From positions 4,712,001 through 4,776,000 of the forward strand of contig LR632930.1 in assembly GCA_902167325.1 (NCBI GenBank): 64,000 nt of DNA, given 5' to 3'. Position numbers and translations under genes: made by a program. The stretch comes from Chitinophaga pinensis (GTDB lineage Bacteria > Bacteroidota > Bacteroidia > Chitinophagales > Chitinophagaceae). Every line of letters begins with the position of its first letter. The stretch's first letter is position 1. Positions 37,525 to 47,665 of this stretch are shown piece by piece. Under the pieces are notes generated by a model. It made no database searches. It was given only the letters and a program-made list of their open reading frames with translations, and was not told the DNA's origin.

Positions 37525-37657
37525 GTATGTACGTAAGGGTATCAGTTTCGTGTAGTATAAACCGGCTTCAATATTTGAACTTAGAGAGTTCAAAACTGCT
37601 ATTCTACATTAGCTTCCACCAAGGGTTTCTCGTATAACTTTAAAGGACTCTTTGAAA

Positions 37658-40012
37658 TTAACTGAGAGAATCAGCAATTTTATACAAATCAGCGATCAGT
37701 GGTTGCTCATTCCTACTCAGATTAATGCCAACATTTCTAAATGCATTTGCCTTTTGCTCCTGAATGCCCTTGTCTTTTAACTTAAATGTTTCAGCTTCAA
37801 ATGCCTCTTTAATACGGTTAGCGTTTTTATTATATATGCTTGCTACTTTACCAATTCCATTAATTAAATTGATATTTTCAGCTTTAACATTAATAAAGAA
37901 ATCCGGGTCCAGTGAGCGGATCTTCTTTGTCAGTTGATTTTCGAAATCAACTATTTCCTGAGAGAGATTATGTTTAACCTGTATTTTTTGAATTAGTTCT
38001 TCCGTTTTCAGCTCTTCATTAACAGATAACTCTTTGTAAAATTTGAGCCTCATAGAACTATAAAATTGAGCTCCGTTTGAATGAATTCTGCAATTTTCAT
38101 TTATAAGAGAGAAGTCGAATGTTTGCACTGTGAGATATCGCTTCTTAAAGTCAGATTCAGCGAGTTTATATCTCGCCAGAATTGCTTTAACTTCCTGCGA
38201 GTTTTCAAATGCAGCGAACTCAGTGCTACCCGAAATATCATTCCAAAGCTCTTCTTTTTTCGCATACTCACCAACATCGTCACTTTTGCTGTACGTTTTC
38301 AACCACTCATGAACTGATTGAAGCAGTTTGCGGGAAAAGGCTTTAAGATCATCTGGTATCCCTTGTGCTAACCAAATAGCTCCGAGATCAAAATAATTTT
38401 GCCTTTTCACTATCGTCATCTTATAGAGAAGTGATAAGGCATAAGGTACAACTGACGAACGGATTTGCCCTATTGCTCCCTCACCCGCACCATAAATCTG
38501 TTCAAAACCTTTAAACATTAACGCCTTGGCAATAAGATCCTCATAAAATGCTCTCCCCATATTCTCAGGATTCATTGGTTTTTCATTATGATCGAGCTGA
38601 ATGAAATCCATAAAATCCCGGAACACTTTTTCACCACCTTTCCGAACGAGAAACGGGCTTGTGCCCCAGGCAACATAGTACTTAGCAACCTGTTCTTTAC
38701 TTAACCTCTTTTGCTTCGGATAATTTCGTTCTATCTGTGTCTTTTGCTTAGGGTTTACCCTTAACATTGTATTAAAATCACCCCTGATTCGCTCAAAAAA
38801 CCATTTAGTACCAGAAGGATCGGTGATGCTTTCAGAAAGTTTTTTAATCTTTACAAGATGCGGACTACGGGATTTAAGGTCTACACTTGAAACTTTATTC
38901 TGTGAGTTCGAATATTGTGAAATTTTAGAAATCAGTTCATCCAGACTATTCCTGTCATCAGTATTTACTATATTGATTTTCGCTGTTACATTTACCTTCG
39001 AAATATCTATTCCTTCTTTGCTGGTAAAATAAATGGAAGCAGTCGTTTGCCCACCATTAACGATTTGAAAATCAGTGAGTGAGCGAATCATCGAAATACC
39101 TTCCGAATGGATTATCTCTGAAGCTGTTGCAGTCACAGTAAGCCCGTTATTATAAGCAATGAATTTCTCAGGCTCCTTGCTAATGGTATCCTTAATCTGT
39201 TTATTAACTCCTTTAAATTGAAGAAAGGAACGTACATTCCGTTCAAGCAGCCGGGAGCTGTAACTATGATAAAGCTGAACCAGCAATGTTGCAGGAAGAA
39301 CCGCAAGATACGATTTGAATATACCAGTATCATCTGCTGCCTGAATGGCTGGTAATGGGCGGTCAAAATTAATAACTATAGGCTCTGCTGTACCTTCACT
39401 GATTTCGAAATTGTATATTTTATTTAAGTCAATCAGCTGATAAATAACTCTGACCTTTTTTGTTTTCCGCTCTTTATTCAAAGTATAAGTGACTGAAACT
39501 TCATCATCACTGAATAGAAAGTTCTTTGGAGACTGCGAACCACGTGTTTCTATTGAAATCGTATTGCTGACAAGAAATACTTCCAGCACATCAATCTGCT
39601 CCTGAAATTCAGCTGTTTCAAGCGACCTTATGAGGACAGCCGCCGGATCTCCTGCCTGAACATCAGTCAGTTGTTTCCGGACAGAGCGACTAAAGAAATT
39701 TTTCACTCTGGCAAAAATATGATCATAGTAGTCTTTTCTGGGGATCATGTAATCGCCTCCGGGAAGAACCAGATTTGATATAAATAACTGAAGACGTTCA
39801 CCTGATTCATTAATCTGGTACCCATCTACTTCAACATTCTCACTGTCTCTCAAAAAATAAGATTCGCTGATTTCTTCAGAGTCAGTCAACCTTGCGAGGT
39901 TTAGTGCCGGTAATACATATGCCAGGAGTTCCTGACGGTTAATATTATTATCTTCCGACGTTATGTTATTAAGCAATGTCCCAAAGAAAGAGTTGAGTTC
40001 GTTCAGCGTCAT
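37658..40012 (-). CDS. AIPR-family (abortive infection phage resistance) protein
   Basis: A 784-residue protein, last gene of the six-gene defence operon. The AIPR domain is recognised by FIAYNNGLTVTATA (about residue 287) and QIVNGGQTTASIYF (about 319), with a basic helix-rich region further on (LKSRSPHLVKIKKLSESI; FFERIRGDFNTML). The family was first noted in abortive-infection loci and is the final component of Mza-type (MutL-Z1-DUF-AIPR) systems. Its biochemical activity is not established to my knowledge. The ATG overlaps the stop of the PD-(D/E)XK gene by four bases (ATGA), giving translational coupling. Base composition is AT-rich like the rest of the island. Confidence 0.92.
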   Translation of the reverse strand: MTLNELNSFFGTLLNNITSEDNNINRQELLAYVLPALNLARLTDSEEISESYFLRDSENVEVDGYQINESGERLQLFISNLVLPGGDYMIPRKDYYDHIFARVKNFFSRSVRKQLTDVQAGDPAAVLIRSLETAEFQEQIDVLEVFLVSNTISIETRGSQSPKNFLFSDDEVSVTYTLNKERKTKKVRVIYQLIDLNKIYNFEISEGTAEPIVINFDRPLPAIQAADDTGIFKSYLAVLPATLLVQLYHSYSSRLLERNVRSFLQFKGVNKQIKDTISKEPEKFIAYNNGLTVTATASEIIHSEGISMIRSLTDFQIVNGGQTTASIYFTSKEGIDISKVNVTAKINIVNTDDRNSLDELISKISQYSNSQNKVSSVDLKSRSPHLVKIKKLSESITDPSGTKWFFERIRGDFNTMLRVNPKQKTQIERNYPKQKRLSKEQVAKYYVAWGTSPFLVRKGGEKVFRDFMDFIQLDHNEKPMNPENMGRAFYEDLIAKALMFKGFEQIYGAGEGAIGQIRSSVVPYALSLLYKMTIVKRQNYFDLGAIWLAQGIPDDLKAFSRKLLQSVHEWLKTYSKSDDVGEYAKKEELWNDISGSTEFAAFENSQEVKAILARYKLAESDFKKRYLTVQTFDFSLINENCRIHSNGAQFYSSMRLKFYKELSVNEELKTEELIQKIQVKHNLSQEIVDFENQLTKKIRSLDPDFFINVKAENINLINGIGKVASIYNKNANRIKEAFEAETFKLKDKGIQEQKANAFRNVGINLSRNEQPLIADLYKIADSLS

Positions 40013-40968
40013 ATGTTTGGTGTTATGTCTTTAGTTGCAAAATCCCGGATATTATTCAGTGCTATTTCATACCTGACCGACTGAATTGCATCCGGCAACC
40101 CAGACCTGGTTATTGAGGGAAAACCCTGCAGACAACAGTTGTACCAGGTCGTCTGTATGATGTTAAACTGATAATGATCATATTGTTCCAGTCCTTGTAC
40201 TGGCAACCCTGTTTTACCTAATGGTGACCAGAACAGATTCATTCTGGTTCCGGTAACAGAGCGCAATATGGCTACAATGCTACCAACCAGTGATGATATT
40301 GTTGTAAATGATGCAGCATTTGAGCTGAATTCAAATATCCCTAAGAACAATTTCTGCCCGCTCAGAAAGTCTAACTGATATTCGCTGGAAATGGTCACTG
40401 AAGAGCGTGATTCAGTAACACTCTTGATTTCAAAATGTGTGTCTTTCAGCTCAAAATCGTGACCTTTACCATATGGACCTTTCCAGGCTGATAGCAGATC
40501 ATTAAAAGGAAGTTTCGACGTAGTAAGTAAATATCTGAGGAAATACAGCTCGGCAAAAATACCCTGCAGTTCAGGTAGTGAAAGCTGACCTGATAACGGT
40601 TCAAACAAATCGAACCATTCGTTACAGATCGCTATAAATCCGGCTTTTGCCAAGCCGGGTTCAATTAGCCGGGTTTGCGTAACAATACTGATAATAAGAT
40701 CACTGAACAGGTTTCTTGCGTCGTCATTCAATAACGTCATAACCAGGACCGGCCGGCCATCATCAGTAGTTTCCTCTAGTGAAATATTAGCCCTTACCAC
40801 CGGATCAACCGGAACATTACCACCTGACTTATTAAAATAGAAATACAGGCAATAATGCATATGCACATCAATTCCGTATCGGAAACGTTCATCAGAAAAT
40901 TCGCCAAAAAACAACAATCGAGGGAAACGCGAATCATCATTCAGTAAAACATCCCATTGAAGTTCCAT
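40009..40968 (-). CDS. PD-(D/E)XK motif protein (DUF4420-like), putative nuclease of the defence operon
   Basis: A 319-residue protein. The candidate nuclease core is Asp171 in KGHDFE followed by Glu180-x-Lys182 in HFEIKSV, a PD-(D/E)XK arrangement. A supporting Glu140 lies in the helix LQGIFAELYFLRYLL. The N-terminal 130 residues are an unassigned alpha/beta region. This matches proteins annotated as PD-(D/E)XK motif protein or DUF4420, the 'DUF' of MutL-Z1-DUF-AIPR systems. Its ATG shares one base with the stop of the Z1 gene (TAATG at 40966-40970) and its stop overlaps the AIPR start. It is the most probable DNA-cleaving subunit besides Vsr; cleavage itself is inferred. Confidence 0.85.
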   Translation of the reverse strand: MELQWDVLLNDDSRFPRLLFFGEFSDERFRYGIDVHMHYCLYFYFNKSGGNVPVDPVVRANISLEETTDDGRPVLVMTLLNDDARNLFSDLIISIVTQTRLIEPGLAKAGFIAICNEWFDLFEPLSGQLSLPELQGIFAELYFLRYLLTTSKLPFNDLLSAWKGPYGKGHDFELKDTHFEIKSVTESRSSVTISSEYQLDFLSGQKLFLGIFEFSSNAASFTTISSLVGSIVAILRSVTGTRMNLFWSPLGKTGLPVQGLEQYDHYQFNIIQTTWYNCCLQGFPSITRSGLPDAIQSVRYEIALNNIRDFATKDITPNI

Positions 40969-43952
40969 TAATTGATATCGTTTATGTCCGTGTTATTAAT
41001 ATCATCCGGAATTTCGTTGTCTTCATTGCGTATTTCCGGTTCTTCCTGACGGATATACTCATTAGCCATATAAATAGCTCCCGGATCATTATCGATCTCC
41101 GGGAAGCTGACTGCATAACCTATAAGCGGAATATCAAGGTTTATTCCTTTTTCTGCGGCAGCTGCCTTAAGTTCAGGATCATGGAAAACCTCATGCAGAT
41201 CTATCAGATAGATTAGCAATAAACCCTGTTTCTCTGAACGCACTTTCCGGAATATCCAACCTGGAATAGACGTATCTCTTGATTTCTCATCTGCTTCGGC
41301 TTCGCTTCGTTCTCTTTCAATCAGTTTTTTCTTTTTGTGCTCTCTGAATTCCGCTTCAGCACTCCTGATAACTTCCTGTGTCAGTCCCAGAGATTCGTCA
41401 TATCCGGAAGTCATAATGTTCATAGATTTCCCGGATGCTGTAAATAACATCTCGTTCTTCAATTCATTATAATACAGCAACTCGTTATCCTTCCGGGGGC
41501 CACTCCTTTTCGTTAAAGTAAGTTCCAATCCATCCACCTGAATACGCCTTCCCGTACCCGAGCCCTTTCGCCTGATCGCAATCTTCCAGTTTGTCAGTAA
41601 CCCACGGTCATTGCACATATCGATATACCGTATCATATCCTCCTTTTTGAAGGAGTTTGGCAGGAATACAGAAGAGAGTTCAAAAAAGCGGTAAAGATCA
41701 TGCTTGCTGCCATTAAAGATGTAGAAACCCTGGTCTTCTATTGAGTTAAAATCCATTTCATGATACAACTTCCTGAATGAAGTCCAGGTATCTTCCAGCG
41801 TATTTTTTCCGATACTGAAGTGAACAGACTGATGAACAATATCCTGGAAAGAATACCGGACTTCTCTGGCATTTCTCAATATTGAAGCGCGTGTGATCTG
41901 GAGTATATCCGGATGTTTGCGGATACGCAACTCAAACTCCTTAGGCGATTTTTTCTGAATTTCCATATTATCGATCTGCTCTTCCAACTCGCAAAGTGCA
42001 GTCGTTATGAAGTTATACTTGACTTCAGTAGCCTTATCAATAAAAAGACGGCAGGCATCAATATATCCTGGCCTGTAACCGAACCAGCGCCCCATTTGCA
42101 AAAGAGCATCATACAGGTTTGTATCCCGGACAAAGTAATTGATAGTCAATCCTTCCAAAGTAAATCCCCTCGATAGCCGGTTACCTCCGACTGCTATATA
42201 TTTTCTGGCCTCTTTTTCAGAATAATCAAGTTTGTCTCCTGTTTGGGAATTGATTGCCTTGATAATGATATTCTTTGCTGCATTAGGTAACAGAGCTGAT
42301 ATATCATCCCAGTTTTTAGGTACAAGCCCATCTGAATTGTACTCCTCCGGAAGATAGGAACGGATATTCGCAACTTTATAAGCAAAGAACTTATTCCATT
42401 GAAGACGGAATTTTTCATAAATACCATCAGGATCTCTGATACTCTCATCACTAAGCTTTTTGGAGATATAGTCTACGTATTCAGATATACGTCCTGCGGC
42501 CTCATTCTGTTCACTGATCAACCTGGAAATATGCACCAGCATCGTCTGATGTGGTGTATAACCAGGCATAATATCCAATACAGATTTCCGGGCGTTCCGG
42601 AGTGCAACAGACAATACAAAGCAGTCAACCGCGTCTGTTAATGACCTGGGTAACGCTACTTCATTATCTCCAAATACAAAGTTCCCGTTATGCTGTGCCT
42701 CAGGAATTGTTTCTATCAGGGGTATCTTATAGTCACCTTCCTGCTCACTTCCGCTTGAAAAAAACCTGCGTGGCCCCAGATAAGAGCTTGGTGTAGCAAG
42801 TTTATAGATGAATTTATCCGGAAACAGTCCCGGAGACAGAGTACATTGAAGTTCCCGGACATCTCCCTGGTAACGGTATTTGATTATCCATGCATTATCC
42901 TCTGTTCTCGCCCCATGCTGATCCTGTAGTATATTGGCAAATGGTGTAGCAGTGTATCCAAGATAGGATCTGCGTTTAAACAGATCCAGCAACGCACGTA
43001 TATGCCCGTTAACTTTACTGGCATATTCTGCACCTTTGAAGCCAAGATTATTCAGTGAAGCATTATCTGCTTCGTCATCAACTACGATTACACTCCTGGC
43101 CAACTGGTTCAATCCTTCCGGCAAAGATGATTTCAACCAAAAAATCAGATTCGTCAATACCGACACGTTTTTCTTACAAACCAGTATGCGTTGATTTGTG
43201 AAGTCAAAATTATTGTCAACCATTGACTTACGAAAATCTGCGGTGCATGTTGTAATTGAGTTGATCTGGTAGATTCCATCCCGTCCAAACTTCTGAATTT
43301 TCCCTACTCCAACATCCTGATTAATCAACGTTCCAACCTCTCCCAGGCCGATGACGTCATTATTGATACGTTTCTGAGTCTGAAAGCGGAGATCTTCCAT
43401 TATTCCTGAAAAAACAATAATTATATCATACCCTGCATCTATTGCTCTGTTAATTACACCGTTGAAATTTGCCGTCTTCCCTGATTGCACAGCGCCAAGC
43501 ACCAGGCCTTTCTGTAACTGCTCAATATTTTTGCGGGGATCTCCCAGCCGTTCAATTATTGCGAATGTGCTTCTTTCTGTATTCTGTATTACATCAATTG
43601 GCCGGTCAATAGTCCGGAGATAATGACTATAGCGGTTAAAGTAATTCCAGGTAATTCCCGGTTCGCGGCGTCCTATCCACCGGTCATAATGTTCACTCTC
43701 ATCTAAAACGCTGTCGGAATCACTGGTAGTTACAATTACGGACTTCAACCTCAATTTAATATTATCTAACCATTCAGACAGTCTTTGTGTATCGGCACCG
43801 TCGAATTCATAATCAAAATCGGGGTTGTTCTTCAATGACTCAAAATGGACTTCTATCTGATGATTCAATTCATTCACTGTAATTGAACCCTGATCACGTT
43901 TAACTTTTTCAGCACGCCTTTTTATGATATCTGACAAATGTTCCCAAGCCAT
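40968..43952 (-). CDS. Z1-domain superfamily II helicase-like ATPase
   Basis: A 994-residue protein with helicase-like motifs: Walker A GAVQSGKT (153-160), motif Ia-like IIIVFSGIMEDLRFQTQKRI, a Walker B-type VDDEAD (291-296) and motif III YTATPFAN (333-340). The Z1 core carries GGNRLSRGFTLEGLTINYF and LLQMGRWFGYRPGY in the second half, containing the motif V/VI arginines. The C-terminal about 350 residues are unassigned, and the last 20 are Asp/Asn/Ile-rich. Z1 proteins partner MutL/MORC-like ATPases in predicted restriction-type systems. It lies 4 nt after the ATPase gene and overlaps the nuclease gene by one base. A DNA translocase or remodeller role is inferred. Confidence 0.93.
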   Translation of the reverse strand: MAWEHLSDIIKRRAEKVKRDQGSITVNELNHQIEVHFESLKNNPDFDYEFDGADTQRLSEWLDNIKLRLKSVIVTTSDSDSVLDESEHYDRWIGRREPGITWNYFNRYSHYLRTIDRPIDVIQNTERSTFAIIERLGDPRKNIEQLQKGLVLGAVQSGKTANFNGVINRAIDAGYDIIIVFSGIMEDLRFQTQKRINNDVIGLGEVGTLINQDVGVGKIQKFGRDGIYQINSITTCTADFRKSMVDNNFDFTNQRILVCKKNVSVLTNLIFWLKSSLPEGLNQLARSVIVVDDEADNASLNNLGFKGAEYASKVNGHIRALLDLFKRRSYLGYTATPFANILQDQHGARTEDNAWIIKYRYQGDVRELQCTLSPGLFPDKFIYKLATPSSYLGPRRFFSSGSEQEGDYKIPLIETIPEAQHNGNFVFGDNEVALPRSLTDAVDCFVLSVALRNARKSVLDIMPGYTPHQTMLVHISRLISEQNEAAGRISEYVDYISKKLSDESIRDPDGIYEKFRLQWNKFFAYKVANIRSYLPEEYNSDGLVPKNWDDISALLPNAAKNIIIKAINSQTGDKLDYSEKEARKYIAVGGNRLSRGFTLEGLTINYFVRDTNLYDALLQMGRWFGYRPGYIDACRLFIDKATEVKYNFITTALCELEEQIDNMEIQKKSPKEFELRIRKHPDILQITRASILRNAREVRYSFQDIVHQSVHFSIGKNTLEDTWTSFRKLYHEMDFNSIEDQGFYIFNGSKHDLYRFFELSSVFLPNSFKKEDMIRYIDMCNDRGLLTNWKIAIRRKGSGTGRRIQVDGLELTLTKRSGPRKDNELLYYNELKNEMLFTASGKSMNIMTSGYDESLGLTQEVIRSAEAEFREHKKKKLIERERSEAEADEKSRDTSIPGWIFRKVRSEKQGLLLIYLIDLHEVFHDPELKAAAAEKGINLDIPLIGYAVSFPEIDNDPGAIYMANEYIRQEEPEIRNEDNEIPDDINNTDINDIN

Positions 43953-43956
43953 ATAT

Positions 43957-45459
43957 TCAGGTTAAGGAGTTGATAAAATTTACAGTATCGCTATTATGTG
44001 TAAAACTTTCCAGAAGGAACTCCCGGATTTCCCCCTCCGCATATCCGGACTCTTTGTAATGCTTCCATAACCTGACTATTTTCTCTTTATCTTCAGCACT
44101 GAGGCCACTGTCAACATCTGACGAAGACAGCAGATCCCCTTTCCAGATCTGGTTTAGTTTCTTTTCCAGAAGGCACGTAATGGTTCTCAGCAGGTCCAGC
44201 TGAGCACTTCCAAGATTCTTTTCCAATTCGCGGATAAGCTCAAAATCATGATTGATTCCGAGTACCGGGCCTGCAGCATTGCTATATCTGGTGATTAGCG
44301 ATAGTCCGCTTTTTGCTGCAGTATTTCTAATAATACCTGAAGCCAGCCTCTCACGGAACTCCTTTGCAGCCTGAGCGGCAACACCCGCTACCATTTCAGA
44401 CATTGCTCTTTTCAGACCAAATGGCAGTTTCAGAGATGATTTGGCAACATTGAGATGAAATTCACTATCGTTGGCATTTGTAATATCTATTTTAATACGT
44501 CCGAACTGAAGTGAGACAGACTTGGAAATTGTTCTGAGCCAACCTCCGTAACTGATCAACCGCTCGTTTCTGTAAACGAAGATCCCCTGTGTTTCTTCAA
44601 GTGTCCGGCCATGTGGGGCCCACACAGTCGGACCTTCCTTTACTTCAGCAGCTGCACGTTTGGGTAAAATAATACCTTGAAACCGGACAAAGGTATCTGT
44701 AGACTGCCAATAGTTTTCAGCAATCAGCTGAACACCCGGAGCGTTGACAGGAAAGGGATCAAACGCATCAATCATGGAATTATTCAGTCGGATCTCTAAT
44801 TTACCGGATTGTAGGAAGCGATGAAATACCAGGCCGAGATGACTACGCAGTTCTTCCAGCTCGTCATTAATCTCGGATCTTTTTTTTAAACGCTCCAGTT
44901 TATACAAGTCTTCCCAGACAATCAGCGTCCGGGGAACAAAAACTTCACTTCGGGAGTGGAAATCCAAACTCTGCGTATAAAAGTCTTTCAGGAAATTTCC
45001 GGTTGCCTCATCGCTTTCAATAAGTAGTGTCCAGTCCTTTGTCTTCTTCAAATACTCTACATCCCAGGTACGTGCCTCGTATAACATACCCTGTTTCGAA
45101 GAAACCAGTGTGAATTTCCTGGCCTGGGAAAAAGAGCCTGTTTTCAGGCCAAGGCCGAACCTGCCAAGATCATTCCCTGCACGTGGTGCATCGAGGTCGG
45201 CACTGGGGAATCTCATGTTTGAAGTAATCTCTTCAACAGTCATACCGCAGCCATCATCTGCAATAAAAAGCCTCAGTGGGGTAACATTCGTATTAATGAG
45301 AAGTTCAACTCTTTTCGCACCGGCGGTAACCGAATTATCTACAAGATCGGCAACGGCCGTGGAAAGTGAATATCCCTGCTCAGATATTGACTTAATGAAA
45401 TATACCGGGGGTGGGGATAAAATCTTATGACAATCATCCTTTATTTCCTTTTCTGACAT
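43957..45459 (-). CDS. MutL/MORC-like GHKL ATPase of the defence operon
   Basis: A 500-residue protein with the Bergerat ATP fold. The N-box is AVADLVDNSVTAGAKRVEL (35-53), giving Asn42 for Mg and Asp38 where MutL and Hsp90 have the catalytic Glu. The G1 box is IADDGCGMTVEEI (66-78) and the lid/G2 is GNDLGRFGLGLKTGSFSQ (95-112). A transducer-like region follows with RNERLISYGGWLR (about 300). The C-terminal 130 residues are helical. Proteins like this are the prokaryotic relatives of MORC ATPases found with Z1 proteins in restriction-type operons. Its start overlaps the methyltransferase gene by 19 nt. A DNA-clamping role coupled to the Z1 ATPase is inferred. Confidence 0.92.
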   Translation of the reverse strand: MSEKEIKDDCHKILSPPPVYFIKSISEQGYSLSTAVADLVDNSVTAGAKRVELLINTNVTPLRLFIADDGCGMTVEEITSNMRFPSADLDAPRAGNDLGRFGLGLKTGSFSQARKFTLVSSKQGMLYEARTWDVEYLKKTKDWTLLIESDEATGNFLKDFYTQSLDFHSRSEVFVPRTLIVWEDLYKLERLKKRSEINDELEELRSHLGLVFHRFLQSGKLEIRLNNSMIDAFDPFPVNAPGVQLIAENYWQSTDTFVRFQGIILPKRAAAEVKEGPTVWAPHGRTLEETQGIFVYRNERLISYGGWLRTISKSVSLQFGRIKIDITNANDSEFHLNVAKSSLKLPFGLKRAMSEMVAGVAAQAAKEFRERLASGIIRNTAAKSGLSLITRYSNAAGPVLGINHDFELIRELEKNLGSAQLDLLRTITCLLEKKLNQIWKGDLLSSSDVDSGLSAEDKEKIVRLWKHYKESGYAEGEIREFLLESFTHNSDTVNFINSLT

Positions 45460-46709
45460 AAAGTTTCCTTTATACGTTTCGCAATTTCAAATGCCATTAA
45501 TGGAGGAACAGCATTGCCAATCTGTTTAAATGCAGGAGTCCGGCTCATTCCTTCCTTTACTCCTTCAAAATAATAGTCATCCGGAAAAGACTGAAGCCTT
45601 GCGGCCTCCCGGACTGTTATAGACCGGTTTTGCTCAATATCAGGATGAATATAATAATGCCCGTCTTTTGCAATGTGCGCCACAACTGTTTGCGAGTATG
45701 GCTCATCTGCCGCAACAATTTTAAACCTGTCATAAAAAGAATGTCTGTTCTGATGTGTTTTTAAACGTTCAGGGAGATCATTATAATTTAATCTTTCCTT
45801 TTTCTCATTCCATTTCCCCACTGCTATCTTATAGATTTCCTTATCCTGTTTTGAATGAGGACGTGCCGTATGCTGGGTTAAAACATCAATCCCGTTCCTT
45901 ATACAGCTTTCATTCAGATAATCATTAATTTTAGATCTGTACTTTAAATATTTTCCCGTATCCTCTCCGGCCTGTATTTTAGGCAAATCCGAGAAAACTG
46001 CTTTAACCTTATGGCCTGTATTGGTGTCTATTTCTTCCAGGTCCGGTAAATCATATTGCAGGTTATCCTGCCAGCCAATAATAATTATACGCTTTCGGTT
46101 TTGCAGTACATTAAAACTATTAGCCTCGACATTAAAAATCCGCATGTGATACCCCTTTTTTAAAAAGAGTTTTTTCATGTTTTCGAGGTACACTCCGTTA
46201 CCTGCGGATTTTAATCCAAGTACATTCTCAAATACGAAAAGTTTTGGCCTGTATTTCTCAAGAAATTTCGCATAATGTACATATAAATAATTCCTGTGAT
46301 CTCCCTTCATTCCATTCTGTGAACGTGCCCGTCCTACAAGAGAATACGCCTGGCAGGGAGGGCCACCTATAATTAAGTCTACTGACTGACCTTTTAACTG
46401 CTTTTCAATTGTTCTGTGAATTATGGGGTTATGGTCTGCTCCTATTGGTAAATTGATTATTGAATCAAGTACTTCTGAAGGCACGGAAGAATATAATTCT
46501 TTCCGGCTAATCTCCCCTTTCAGATACCTGATATATGTGTCGTATTTGTTTACTGATTTAAGATAATGATACACTGAACGTGTTCTGAGGGTAAAACAGG
46601 CTGCCTCATCAATTTCAACATGCGCAACAGGCTCAAAGCCGGCTTTAATAAAACCTTCTGACAGCCCTCCGGCTCCGGCAAACAAATCAATAAATCTAAA
46701 GTTACTCAT
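45441..46709 (-). CDS. DNA (cytosine-5) methyltransferase (Dcm family)
   Basis: A 422-residue enzyme with the ordered C5-MTase motifs. Motif I is DLFAGAGGLSEGF (8-20), motif IV is GGPPCQAYS with catalytic Cys119, motif VI is ENVLG (161-165), motif VIII is QNRKRIIIIGW, and the C-terminal IX/X are RLQSFPDDYYF and QIGNAVPP. The target-recognition region lies between VIII and IX, about 225-350. It is followed by the ATPase gene with a 19-nt overlap and preceded by vsr with an 8-nt overlap. It should mark host DNA with 5-methylcytosine and so could protect it from the operon's nuclease. The recognition sequence cannot be read from the protein. Confidence 0.97.
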   Translation of the reverse strand: MSNFRFIDLFAGAGGLSEGFIKAGFEPVAHVEIDEAACFTLRTRSVYHYLKSVNKYDTYIRYLKGEISRKELYSSVPSEVLDSIINLPIGADHNPIIHRTIEKQLKGQSVDLIIGGPPCQAYSLVGRARSQNGMKGDHRNYLYVHYAKFLEKYRPKLFVFENVLGLKSAGNGVYLENMKKLFLKKGYHMRIFNVEANSFNVLQNRKRIIIIGWQDNLQYDLPDLEEIDTNTGHKVKAVFSDLPKIQAGEDTGKYLKYRSKINDYLNESCIRNGIDVLTQHTARPHSKQDKEIYKIAVGKWNEKKERLNYNDLPERLKTHQNRHSFYDRFKIVAADEPYSQTVVAHIAKDGHYYIHPDIEQNRSITVREAARLQSFPDDYYFEGVKEGMSRTPAFKQIGNAVPPLMAFEIAKRIKETLCQKRK

Positions 46710-47124
46710 CCGATTTTAATTGCATTAATAGTTGTTGTAGTGTTTCTTCCTGCTTTTCTGCTTTCAGCTCACACTCCCATATTATTATTACTCTCCAGCC
46801 TTTCTGTTGCAGCAAAACAACACTGTCTGCATCTTTTTTAATATTTCCGTTTATTTTGTTCAGCCACCATTCCGTTCTCGTTTTAGGAATAACATAATAC
46901 CTGCAGTTTGTATGCCCGTGCCAGAAGCATCCATGTATAAATAAAATCGTTTTATACCTGGGTAAAACCAAATCCGGTTTACCCGGAAATCTTTTATCAT
47001 GTAACCTATACCTGAACCCTTTTGAAAAAAGGAACTTTCTGACCAGAATTTCGGGCTTCGTATCTTTCCCTTTAATTCTACTCATGTTATAACTCCTTAC
47101 TTCTTTGGAATGTACGTCTCCCAT
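46702..47124 (-). CDS. vsr: Very short patch repair (Vsr) endonuclease
   Basis: A 140-residue protein, normal for Vsr. The active-site positions match E. coli numbering: Glu25 in DTKPE, Asp51 in FPGKPDLVLP, His64 and His69/His71 in FIHGCFWHGH, with zinc-site Cys66 and Cys74. The C-terminal GWRVIIIWECEL is also typical. Vsr nicks at T:G mismatches that arise when 5-methylcytosine deaminates next to a Dcm-type methylase, which is the next gene (8-nt overlap). As first gene of the operon it carries the promoter region upstream of 47124. Whether it also acts as a restriction nuclease in this system is unknown. Confidence 0.97.
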   Translation of the reverse strand: MGDVHSKEVRSYNMSRIKGKDTKPEILVRKFLFSKGFRYRLHDKRFPGKPDLVLPRYKTILFIHGCFWHGHTNCRYYVIPKTRTEWWLNKINGNIKKDADSVVLLQQKGWRVIIIWECELKAEKQEETLQQLLMQLKSDE

Positions 47125-47560
47125 TTTTAATCTTAACTGGAATCAAAAGGCTCCCAACATCCGCCTGTAAGACTTCTGCTGTTTAAAACAAGGTTTCCAA
47201 CATTGGCTGCATAGATTTGTATTCAAATTTGTAATAGCGGATCTTGTCAGAGTTAACCTGCAGGCAAATTATTGGTTTTTCACCGTCCAGCCAAAACTGC
47301 TTTTATTCCATTTTCAGCTTTCAGGAAACAGCATAAGCCTTTCAGACAAATCTTCTGCAAAATACACAAATTTTATAAGCGATGTTGTAAATAAAGCACC
47401 TGAAAACCCGCTATAATTTGTTTACTCAATTCATTGCAGATCATCTCAGGAGCGGGCTTTATTGTTCTGCATTATTCTTCCCTTCCGGATATGCAGCGTT
47501 ACGTCAATAGCATAATTCTTCCGGCACATCCCTTCAACATATTTTGTGTGTCCAACTCCT
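47125..47560. other. AT-rich region upstream of the defence operon
   Basis: No gene is apparent. It must hold the minus-strand promoter of the vsr-led operon, but I find no exact TAnnTTTG on that strand. ACCCGCT near 47406 and AGCGGGCTTT near 47452 could pair across a roughly 38-base loop, giving a long-looped terminator-like structure on the plus strand. The composition is like the island rather than the flanking chromosome, so the island probably extends to about here. Confidence 0.45.
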
Positions 47561-47576
47561 GCCAGGGGCACACTAC

Positions 47577-47661
47577 TGGCAACCCGCCATAATCGAAGAG
47601 TGGCACCGGTCTGAAAAACCGGAACATGGAAACACAACAGGTTCGAATCCTGTGCTGCCCA
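47577..47661 (+). tRNA. Degenerate class II tRNA-like element (Ser-like body, GAA in the anticodon position)
   Basis: Read by eye, the elements run as follows. An acceptor 5' strand TGGCAAC (47577-47583) faces GCTGCCC (47654-47660) with two mismatches. The D-stem is GCCA/TGGC, the anticodon stem CCGGT/ACCGG (47606-47610, 47618-47622) with loop CTGAAAA. A 14-nt variable region follows, then a perfect T-arm ACAGG-TTCGAAT-CCTGT (47637-47653). The GCACCGGTCT segment resembles tRNA-Ser. U8 and the D-loop GG pair are missing, so this may be a pseudo-tRNA or an integration-site remnant rather than a working tRNA. It sits at the right edge of the defence island. Confidence 0.35.
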
Positions 47662-47665
47662 CCTT

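What the first reader, a model, noticed from the sequence alone, without database searches (positions are those of the whole stretch)
37658..47124. Six-gene defence island joining a Dcm/Vsr pair to a MutL-Z1-DUF-AIPR (Mza-like) system
All six genes are minus-strand, separated by at most 4 nt or overlapping, so they form one transcription unit: vsr, C5-MTase, MutL/MORC-like ATPase, Z1 ATPase, PD-(D/E)XK (DUF4420-like), AIPR. The last four match the order named for Mza (MutL, Z1, DUF, AIPR) and for predicted MORC-linked restriction systems. The added methyltransferase and Vsr suggest a self/non-self mark (5mC) read by the MutL-Z1-nuclease assembly, with Vsr repairing deaminated sites. The island is visibly AT-richer than its flanks, which fits horizontal transfer.
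Basis: partly seen in the sequence, partly recalled or inferred. Interest (0 to 1): 0.88.

Follow-up and report, generated by a model that had tools for sequence, protein, structure and literature searches.

The report
Two-part DNA-restriction defence operon
Six overlapping bacterial genes look like a defence system that marks the cell's own DNA with methyl groups and attacks unmarked DNA; this kind of gene set was already predicted, but here the marking half and the attacking half are closest to those of different relatives, as if the two parts can be swapped.

Summary
Window 37658-47124 (minus strand) holds vsr, C5 methyltransferase (MTase), MORC-type GHKL ATPase, Z1 motor, DUF4420 PD-(D/E)XK nuclease and AIPR, touching or overlapping, on a 40.4% G+C insert of about 10 kb (rest of window 51.5%) missing at this place in the nearest congener. 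MTase and Vsr are the only ones found in the genome. The kind is known: Iyer 2008 described MORC/helicase/nuclease/Dcm/Vsr operons, and Miller 2022 this gene set as a putative type II system resembling mza. MTase and Vsr are not an unusual addition: 87 of 90 complete four-gene cores found here have a C5 MTase within 8 kb, 62 a Vsr within 10 kb. What I add: the operon is a mosaic. MORC-Z1-DUF4420-AIPR is 66-79% identical to a Mucilaginibacter system whose MTase is 35-41% identical, while vsr and MTase are 67% and 79% identical to a Chitinophagaceae system whose Z1 and AIPR are about 30% identical. Across 80 systems the effector genes co-diverge (rho 0.72-0.93), the MTase hardly (0.08-0.14). Best reading: restriction-like defence from two exchangeable modules. 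Membership in Mza proper is not met (curated cut-offs, no MzaA). No activity was tested.

The parts
46702..47124 (-). vsr, very short patch repair endonuclease, 140 aa
   Evidence: Pfam Vsr 117 bits; PDB 1cw0 E. coli Vsr E 1e-35; D51, G65, F67, W68, H69 conserved in 65-66 of 66 and present; only Vsr found in the genome
45441..46709 (-). C5-cytosine methyltransferase, 422 aa, DrmMII-like, Cys119
   Evidence: Pfam DNA_methylase 207 bits; PADLOC DrmMII PDLC02649 562 bits; only PF00145 gene found in the genome
43957..45459 (-). MORC-type GHKL ATPase (MzaB-like), 500 aa
   Evidence: HATPase_c_3 100 bits; MORC motif at 292-302; PDB MORC2 E 5e-5; MzaB 194 of 850 bits needed
40968..43952 (-). DEAD-Z1 type ATPase/translocase (MzaC-like), 994 aa; QSGKT at 156, DDEAD at 292, DALLQMGRWFG at 615
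   Evidence: Z1 225 bits; motifs
40009..40968 (-). DUF4420 PD-(D/E)XK nuclease (MzaD-like), 319 aa; E140, D171, E180, K182 invariant
   Evidence: DUF4420 137 bits; the four residues conserved in 99 of 99 aligned homologues, window included
37658..40012 (-). AIPR protein (MzaE-like), 784 aa; core motif QIVNGGQTTAS at 316
   Evidence: AIPR 253 bits, AIPR_N 48 bits; model pLDDT 82.7; residues 1-210 weakly resemble several nuclease structures
45420..45493 (-). mosaic breakpoint between marking cassette and effector cassette
   Evidence: DNA match to L031 covers 47364-45493 (72%), DNA match to L036 covers 45420-37794 (70.5%)
47126..47340 (-). remnant (ends approximate) of a small Xre/Cro-type HTH gene upstream of vsr, no longer one open frame
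   Evidence: aligned to the intact 69-aa HTH_3 gene just upstream of vsr in L031
37617..47577 (.). inserted island (9,961 bp) relative to the nearest congener G684, which has 363 bp with a tRNA-Leu gene here

Best explanation
A horizontally acquired restriction-modification-like defence operon made of two separately inherited modules. Marking module: the MTase puts 5mC on a specific site of host DNA, and Vsr repairs the T:G mismatches that arise when 5mC deaminates. Effector module: the MORC ATPase (a clamp or loop former), the DEAD-Z1 motor (ATP-driven movement on DNA, as proposed from experiments for CglI), the DUF4420 nuclease and AIPR attack DNA that lacks the mark. Shown here: families, intact known motifs, single MTase and Vsr in the genome, recent insertion, mosaic origin, and across relatives co-divergence of the four effectors without the MTase. 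Inferred: attack on unmarked DNA, the division of labour, the order of steps, anti-phage activity. The confidence given is for a methylation-linked DNA defence system of this two-module make-up; the step by step mechanism is less certain.
For: Families. Known catalytic motifs intact in MTase, Vsr, MORC, Z1 and DUF4420. 87 of 90 four-gene cores have a C5 MTase within 8 kb, 62 a Vsr within 10 kb; the core with an MTase recurs in Bacteroidota, Pseudomonadota, Actinomycetota, cyanobacteria and archaea. Only MTase and Vsr found in the genome, both on an island missing in the nearest congener. Spearman correlation of pairwise identities in 80 non-redundant systems: MORC-Z1 0.93, Z1-AIPR 0.85, Z1-DUF4420 0.73, but Z1-MTase 0.08; in the 57 with a Vsr, MTase-Vsr 0.43. 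With the MTase gene directly upstream of MORC (34 systems): effector pairs 0.88-0.92, Z1-MTase 0.03. Mosaic breakpoint in the window's own DNA and conflicting trees: window plus L031 for MTase (support 100/98), window plus L036 for Z1 (100/100). A Z1 motor working with a C5 MTase is known from CglI/NgoAVII (PMC4267653 passages; PMC5737866 abstract). mza is called validated by Miller 2022.
Against: The E. coli mza loci read here have no linked MTase or Vsr, so this module need not have its own marker. The lack of co-divergence can also mean that the MTase is a separate passenger; Vsr follows the effectors no better (0.08-0.13). No sequence-recognition domain was identified in the effectors. The Z1 model is poor (pLDDT 61.5). 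I found no functional data for this operon.
Confidence: 0.66

Rival explanations
1. The four-gene core is a methylation-independent defence system (as mza may be), and MTase plus Vsr are a neighbouring, separately selected cassette (orphan methylation, protection against other restriction systems, or addiction).
For: MTase history is nearly independent of the effectors; the E. coli mza loci read have no linked MTase; MTases with a closely similar recognition region also sit beside other genes: 6 of 70 sampled Bacteroidota C5 MTases have it next to a GHKL ATPase with no Z1, DUF4420 or AIPR in the stretch fetched.
Against: 87 of 90 cores keep an MTase close by despite exchange, and in the window the MTase and MORC genes overlap by 19 nt; a passenger should be lost more often.
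Confidence: 0.22
2. An abortive-infection system: infection releases AIPR or the DUF4420 nuclease to damage the cell; the MTase is an antidote-like mark.
For: AIPR carries the name abortive infection phage resistance (PMC2292703 figure legend; Pfam AIPR_N); the AIPR N-terminal region weakly resembles nuclease structures.
Against: No conserved catalytic motif in the AIPR N-terminal region: only F106 and D195 reach 93% in the first 210 residues; the gene content is restriction-like.
Confidence: 0.08
3. A type IV-like system that attacks foreign methylated DNA.
For: Weak structural similarity of the AIPR N-terminal region to MspJI and McrBC chains.
Against: The operon itself encodes a 5mC MTase, which would create self targets.
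Confidence: 0.03

Closest known systems
Miller 2022 putative defence system type II (PMC9523054, section 11 read)
   Same: Z1 protein, PD-(D/E)XK protein (DUF4420; printed DUF4220), C5 MTase, AIPR, with MORC; mzaA in only a few; low similarity to mzaBCDE
   Different: Vsr is not named for type II in the section read (DNA repair endonucleases are named for type I); no module exchange described there
Mza, mzaABCDE (Gao 2020, not held; known here through Miller 2022, NCBIfam names and E. coli records)
   Same: B-C-D-E gene order and families; 27-32% identity over aligned positions to the E. coli proteins
   Different: No MzaA sigma factor; linked MTase and Vsr; far below the NCBIfam equivalog cut-offs
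Prokaryotic MORC operons, third type (Iyer, Abhiman and Aravind 2008, PMC2292703, section 3 parts 1-2 read)
   Same: MORC motif, SFII helicase with a DThhQXuRhFG domain (which I identify with Z1), restriction-endonuclease-fold protein with E-D-ExK, cytosine methylase, Vsr; AIPR in the figure legend
   Different: Nothing of substance found; the window's helicase motif reads DALLQMGRWFG
CglI / NgoAVII restriction-modification systems
   Same: C5 MTase (recalled to be C5) with an NTP-dependent DEAD-Z1 motor
   Different: Their nuclease is PLD-B3 with site reading in the B3 domain; here a PD-(D/E)XK DUF4420 protein plus MORC and AIPR
DISARM (DrmMII)
   Same: Best PADLOC model of the MTase is DrmMII (562 bits)
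   Different: No DrmA, DrmB or DrmC in the match lists shown for the six proteins

Membership tests
Miller 2022 type II putative defence system | Z1 protein, DUF4420 PD-(D/E)XK protein and C5 MTase as core | tested here: met
Miller 2022 type II putative defence system | additional AIPR protein, associated with MORC | tested here: met
Miller 2022 type II putative defence system | low similarity to mzaBCDE (about 20% by their measure) | tested here: inconclusive
   27, 32, 27 and 31% over aligned positions to E. coli MzaB-E, another measure than theirs
Mza (mzaABCDE) | homologues of MzaB, C, D, E in that order | tested here: met
   PADLOC E 9e-47, 6e-89, 1e-10, 9e-61; order
Mza (mzaABCDE) | NCBIfam equivalog cut-offs for MzaB-E | tested here: not met
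   194 of 850, 376 of 1500, 54 of 420, 273 of 1050 bits
Mza (mzaABCDE) | sigma-70 family MzaA upstream of MzaB | tested here: not met
   MTase directly upstream of MORC; no MzaA in the lists for the six proteins or for P0009, the next gene upstream scanned
Mza (mzaABCDE) | anti-phage activity | not testable with these tools
   needs bench work
Prokaryotic MORC operon, third type (Iyer 2008) | GHKL protein with MORC motif GhXhhpXXRhl | tested here: met
   GIFVYRNERLI at 292
Prokaryotic MORC operon, third type (Iyer 2008) | distinct SFII helicase with DThhQXuRhFG | tested here: met
   DALLQMGRWFG at 615, one departure (A for T); the nine other Z1 proteins all have DT there
Prokaryotic MORC operon, third type (Iyer 2008) | restriction-endonuclease-fold protein with E-D-ExK | tested here: met
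   E140, D171, E180, K182 in 99 of 99; the fold itself was not modelled here
CglI/NgoAVII type | PLD-B3 nuclease subunit | tested here: not met
   no PLD or B3 match in the six proteins
DISARM | DrmA helicase, DrmB, DrmC | tested here: not met
   no such match among the six (the PADLOC list of the MTase was cut at 25 of 61 families)
Dcm/Vsr of E. coli type (CCWGG) | Dcm-type target recognition region | tested here: not met
   profile alignment of recognition regions gives probability under 10% for the four usable MTase clusters against E. coli Dcm; aligned columns differ

The most novel reading that the evidence does not exclude
The effector module is indifferent to which MTase protein does the marking, as long as the mark falls on an acceptable site: MTases of several subfamilies are found before closely related effectors (in the window the switch lies at the MTase/MORC junction), yet 87 of 96 system MTases keep one recognition-region signature seen in 2 of 64 other C5 MTases (8 of 70 if six beside lone GHKL ATPases are counted as controls). 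One marking cassette (MTase, Vsr, sometimes an HTH gene) would then serve several effector sets, and the E. coli form of mza, which lacks a linked MTase, would borrow the host's chromosomal Dcm and Vsr or have changed its needs.
Probability: 0.22. Interest if true: 0.66.

Novelty: new member of a known kind. Interest (0 to 1): 0.42.

Why it matters
Prokaryotic MORC ATPases are the relatives of the eukaryotic chromatin MORC proteins, and no MORC-Z1 system has a worked-out mechanism in the papers I could read. The exchange of the MTase against a conserved four-gene effector gives a direct experiment: put different MTases in front of the same effectors and ask which marks protect. It also poses a testable question on E. 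coli Dcm, long regarded as an orphan MTase (recalled): does mza need it?

Tried and rejected
Rejected: Mza proper as the label (cut-offs and MzaA not met). Rejected: a system built by adding Dcm/Vsr to Mza; the linked form is the usual one in this survey. Left open: CCWGG as the site. For it: a recalled report that a DISARM DrmMII methylates CCWGG (a review passage says so for DISARM, PMC12926258), Vsr presence, and the DrmMII match. Against it: the recognition region is not of the Dcm type, and a Neorhizobium MTase beside an EcoRII-type nuclease and a Vsr has the Dcm-type region instead; the Serratia DISARM MTases are reported with other motifs (PMC9142583 passage).

Led nowhere: Foldseek of the AIPR model against PDB had nothing better than E 0.2. 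The VIA second look gave AF1548 (unknown function) Z 7.6, then MspJI, Shedu, SduA, N.BspD6I, HamA, Cdn1, Can2 and McrBC chains at Z 4.2-6.9 over residues about 1-210 (nuclease folds, as I recall), but also acetyl-CoA carboxylase up to Z 5.5, and SspE at Z 4.3-4.5 over about 228-371; all lie under the level the tool calls safe. The Z1 model was too poor to search. Promoter scans gave nothing upstream of vsr above chance. In nine MTase-swapped and nine coupled pairs, chosen by hand and judged by eye, no effector stretch was variable only in swapped pairs; the AIPR C-terminal part varies in both. Two of those nine are weak swaps: L078/L085 (MTase 54%, same cluster) and L070/L087 (43%). In one search the rows for clusters 10 and 12 are stale output from empty files and were dropped; recognition regions were extracted by pattern for 51 of 96 MTases only (cluster 4 31 of 31, cluster 11 7 of 7, cluster 5 10 of 32, cluster 6 2 of 6).

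It favours relatives of this Z1, and L031 and L076 look like the same locus. 16 of 106 lacked one or more effector genes in range, several at contig ends. The nearest MTase within 8 kb was taken as cognate, hence the repeat with directly adjacent genes. The three cores without an MTase: L073 (contig starts at MORC; none found in its genome), L115 (contig ends after AIPR), L182 (MTase beyond 8 kb). In one search the small MTase correlations with MORC, DUF4420 and AIPR (0.11, 0.14, 0.12) are nominally above chance (p 0.035, 0.010, 0.020; 199 permutations); none is (p 0.09-0.37). For one search the 70 control MTases came from 30 loci returned by the tool and 40 that I picked from its list, leaving out those I knew to be in such systems; six beside GHKL genes were set apart after their score was seen. 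The alignment-free pattern is a weaker contrast: 65 of 66 scorable system MTases, 7 of 24 scorable others, 30 and 40 not scorable.

Papers: PMC9523054 section 11 and passages; PMC2292703 abstract and section 3 parts 1-2 of 3; PMC5379612, PMC9142583, PMC12926258 and PMC4267653 passages; PMC5737866 abstract and outline; Gao 2020 not held. That I saw no report of the module exchange rests on searches of this library only.
Full report
Observation. The six ORFs lie where stated, all on the minus strand, each overlapping or within 4 nt of the next. Pfam names them Vsr, C5 DNA methylase, GHKL ATPase, Z1, DUF4420 and AIPR, all above gathering score. Residues conserved in at least 93% of the aligned relatives are present in the window proteins, apart from five positions in MORC (one of them a gap) and one in Z1: MTase PCQ, ENV and QxRxR, Vsr D51/H69, MORC D41/N42 and the GxGxK region, Z1 QSGKT/DDEAD, DUF4420 E140/D171/E180/K182 are intact.

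Where it sits. Island 37617-47577 has 40.4% G+C against 51.5% for the rest of the window; the lowest of 172 other windows of that length has 49.85%. The genome is one contig of about 6.28 Mb whose family is probably Chitinophagaceae (inferred: a member of its family, G253/L031, has the same gene layout as locus L076 of a named Chitinophagaceae bacterium). In the nearest congener, G684, the DNA matches the window up to 37616 and again from 47578 (91% and 90%), with 363 bp in between that carry a tRNA-Leu gene and end at a tRNA-Tyr gene. In three other congeners fetched (G812, G807, G780) nothing of the island matches at this place either. In the window no tRNA-Leu or tRNA-Tyr is recognised by ARAGORN; the Tyr copy survives as a changed sequence. 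The genome search found one C5 MTase gene and one Vsr, both here.

What kind it is. Iyer and colleagues (2008, PMC2292703) described prokaryotic MORC operons with a distinct SFII helicase, a novel restriction-endonuclease-fold protein, cytosine methylases and Vsr, with AIPR named in the figure legend as common in RM operons. Miller and colleagues (2022, PMC9523054) described a putative defence system with Z1, DUF4420 (printed DUF4220) and C5 MTase as core; their type II adds AIPR, is associated with MORC and resembles mza at about 20% identity. The window operon fits both. Its MORC protein has the MORC motif and its best solved relatives are MORC2 and MORC4.

Mza or not. PADLOC finds MzaB, C, D and E, but NCBIfam's equivalog cut-offs are 3.8 to 7.8 times the scores reached and no MzaA was found. 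A Pseudomonas locus (L087) shows the bridge: a sigma-70 protein with its best match to MzaA (241 of 800 bits) and MzaB-E matches of 281-1151 bits, also under their cut-offs, with an MTase on one side and a Vsr on the other. The two E. coli mza loci read here have no linked MTase or Vsr; mza covers at least 80% of the query in 55 of 5,426 E. coli genomes. E. coli MG1655 has dcm and vsr as neighbours elsewhere in its chromosome.

The survey. In 106 regions around Z1 relatives, 90 hold all four effector genes; 87 of these have a C5 MTase within 8 kb, 62 a Vsr within 10 kb, 61 both. In 26 of 90 both lie upstream on the same strand as here.

The mosaic. The closest effectors found are in Mucilaginibacter pedocola (L036): MORC 72%, Z1 77%, DUF4420 66%, AIPR 79%, but MTase 41% by pairwise alignment (35% in the multiple alignment) and 527 rather than 422 aa; its Vsr (65%) lies 4.4 kb from the MTase beyond three further genes, one with a KaiC-like ATPase domain. 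The closest MTase found (79%) is in L031/L076, whose Z1 is 31% and AIPR 29% identical to the window's and whose Vsr is 67% (best Vsr: L185, 68%). DNA matches switch between 45493 and 45420, at the MTase/MORC junction. The match to L031 extends about 240 bp upstream of vsr (66% identity), over a small HTH gene that is intact in L031 and broken in the window. Trees of 23 chosen systems agree: window with L031 for MTase (100/98), with L036 for Z1 (100/100).

The general pattern. In 80 non-redundant systems the four effectors co-diverge (rho 0.72-0.93), the MTase hardly (0.08-0.14); in the 57 that also have a Vsr, MTase and Vsr partly follow each other (0.43), Vsr and effectors hardly (0.08-0.13). 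With MTase directly upstream of MORC, 34 systems: 0.88-0.92 against 0.02-0.09. Of 27 system pairs with Z1 identity 75-95%, 9 have MTases from different clusters (pairs are not independent). Swapped pairs show no effector stretch that is variable only in them (by eye).

A limit on the exchange. The MTases are not random C5 enzymes. Profiles of the recognition region of clusters 4, 5, 6 and 11 match each other (E 1e-7 to 1e-49 over six pairs) but not E. coli Dcm (see limits). Arg283 and Asp289 (window numbering) occur together in 87 of 96 system MTases, in 2 of 64 other Bacteroidota C5 MTases, and in 6 of 6 next to a GHKL ATPase without Z1 in the stretch fetched. One of the two exceptions, L259, sits beside a DrmE_C match below cut-off and helicases. 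These enzymes may form one broad DrmMII-like clade, so the signature may reflect descent rather than a shared target. Nine system MTases lack it.

Mechanism. By analogy with CglI, where a DEAD-Z1 protein hydrolyses ATP on unmethylated cognate DNA once the R protein's B3 domain has bound the site (PMC4267653 passages), I infer that Z1 is the motor, DUF4420 the nuclease, and MORC a clamp or loop former as Iyer proposed. AIPR is unassigned: its first 210 residues or so resemble several nuclease structures weakly and lack a conserved catalytic motif. No PLD-B3 protein is present, so how the site is read is open.

Verdict. A real, apparently intact, horizontally acquired member of a known predicted kind. 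The new element is the evidence, in this operon and across relatives, that marking and effector modules are exchanged; whether the effectors depend on the mark is untested.

Noticed in passing
window 47577-47664: A tRNA-Tyr gene recognised in congener G684 (L174 3716-3803) is no longer recognised by ARAGORN in the window, right at the island edge; a tRNA-Leu of G684 (L174 3951-4028) is absent.
   Followed up: partly
window 47126-47340: Broken remnant of a small Xre/Cro-type HTH gene that is intact upstream of vsr in L031 (1784-1993); with a strict search such a gene lay within 300 bp of Vsr/MTase in 2 of 106 loci, L031 and its look-alike L076.
   Followed up: partly
L242, L235, L246, L237, L249, L238: C5 MTases with the same recognition signature sit next to a 619-731 aa GHKL ATPase without Z1, DUF4420 or AIPR in the stretch fetched. 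None of five partner proteins scanned (from L246, L242, L249, L235) has a Pfam family; of two scanned with PADLOC, L242:10839-12797 matches PDC-M33A and L246:11116-12204 nothing.
   Followed up: partly
L036 2531-6779: Three genes, one with a KaiC-like ATPase domain, lie between vsr and MTase in the Mucilaginibacter relative.
   Followed up: no
L265 1937-4857: An EcoRII-type nuclease, Vsr and Dcm-type MTase lie divergently upstream of an mzaA-E-like set on a Neorhizobium plasmid.
   Followed up: partly
window 37658-40012 (P0001 residues 228-371): The AIPR core with QIVNGGQTTAS aligns weakly (Z 4.3-4.5) with the N-terminal part of SspE, a defence NTPase as I recall.
   Followed up: no
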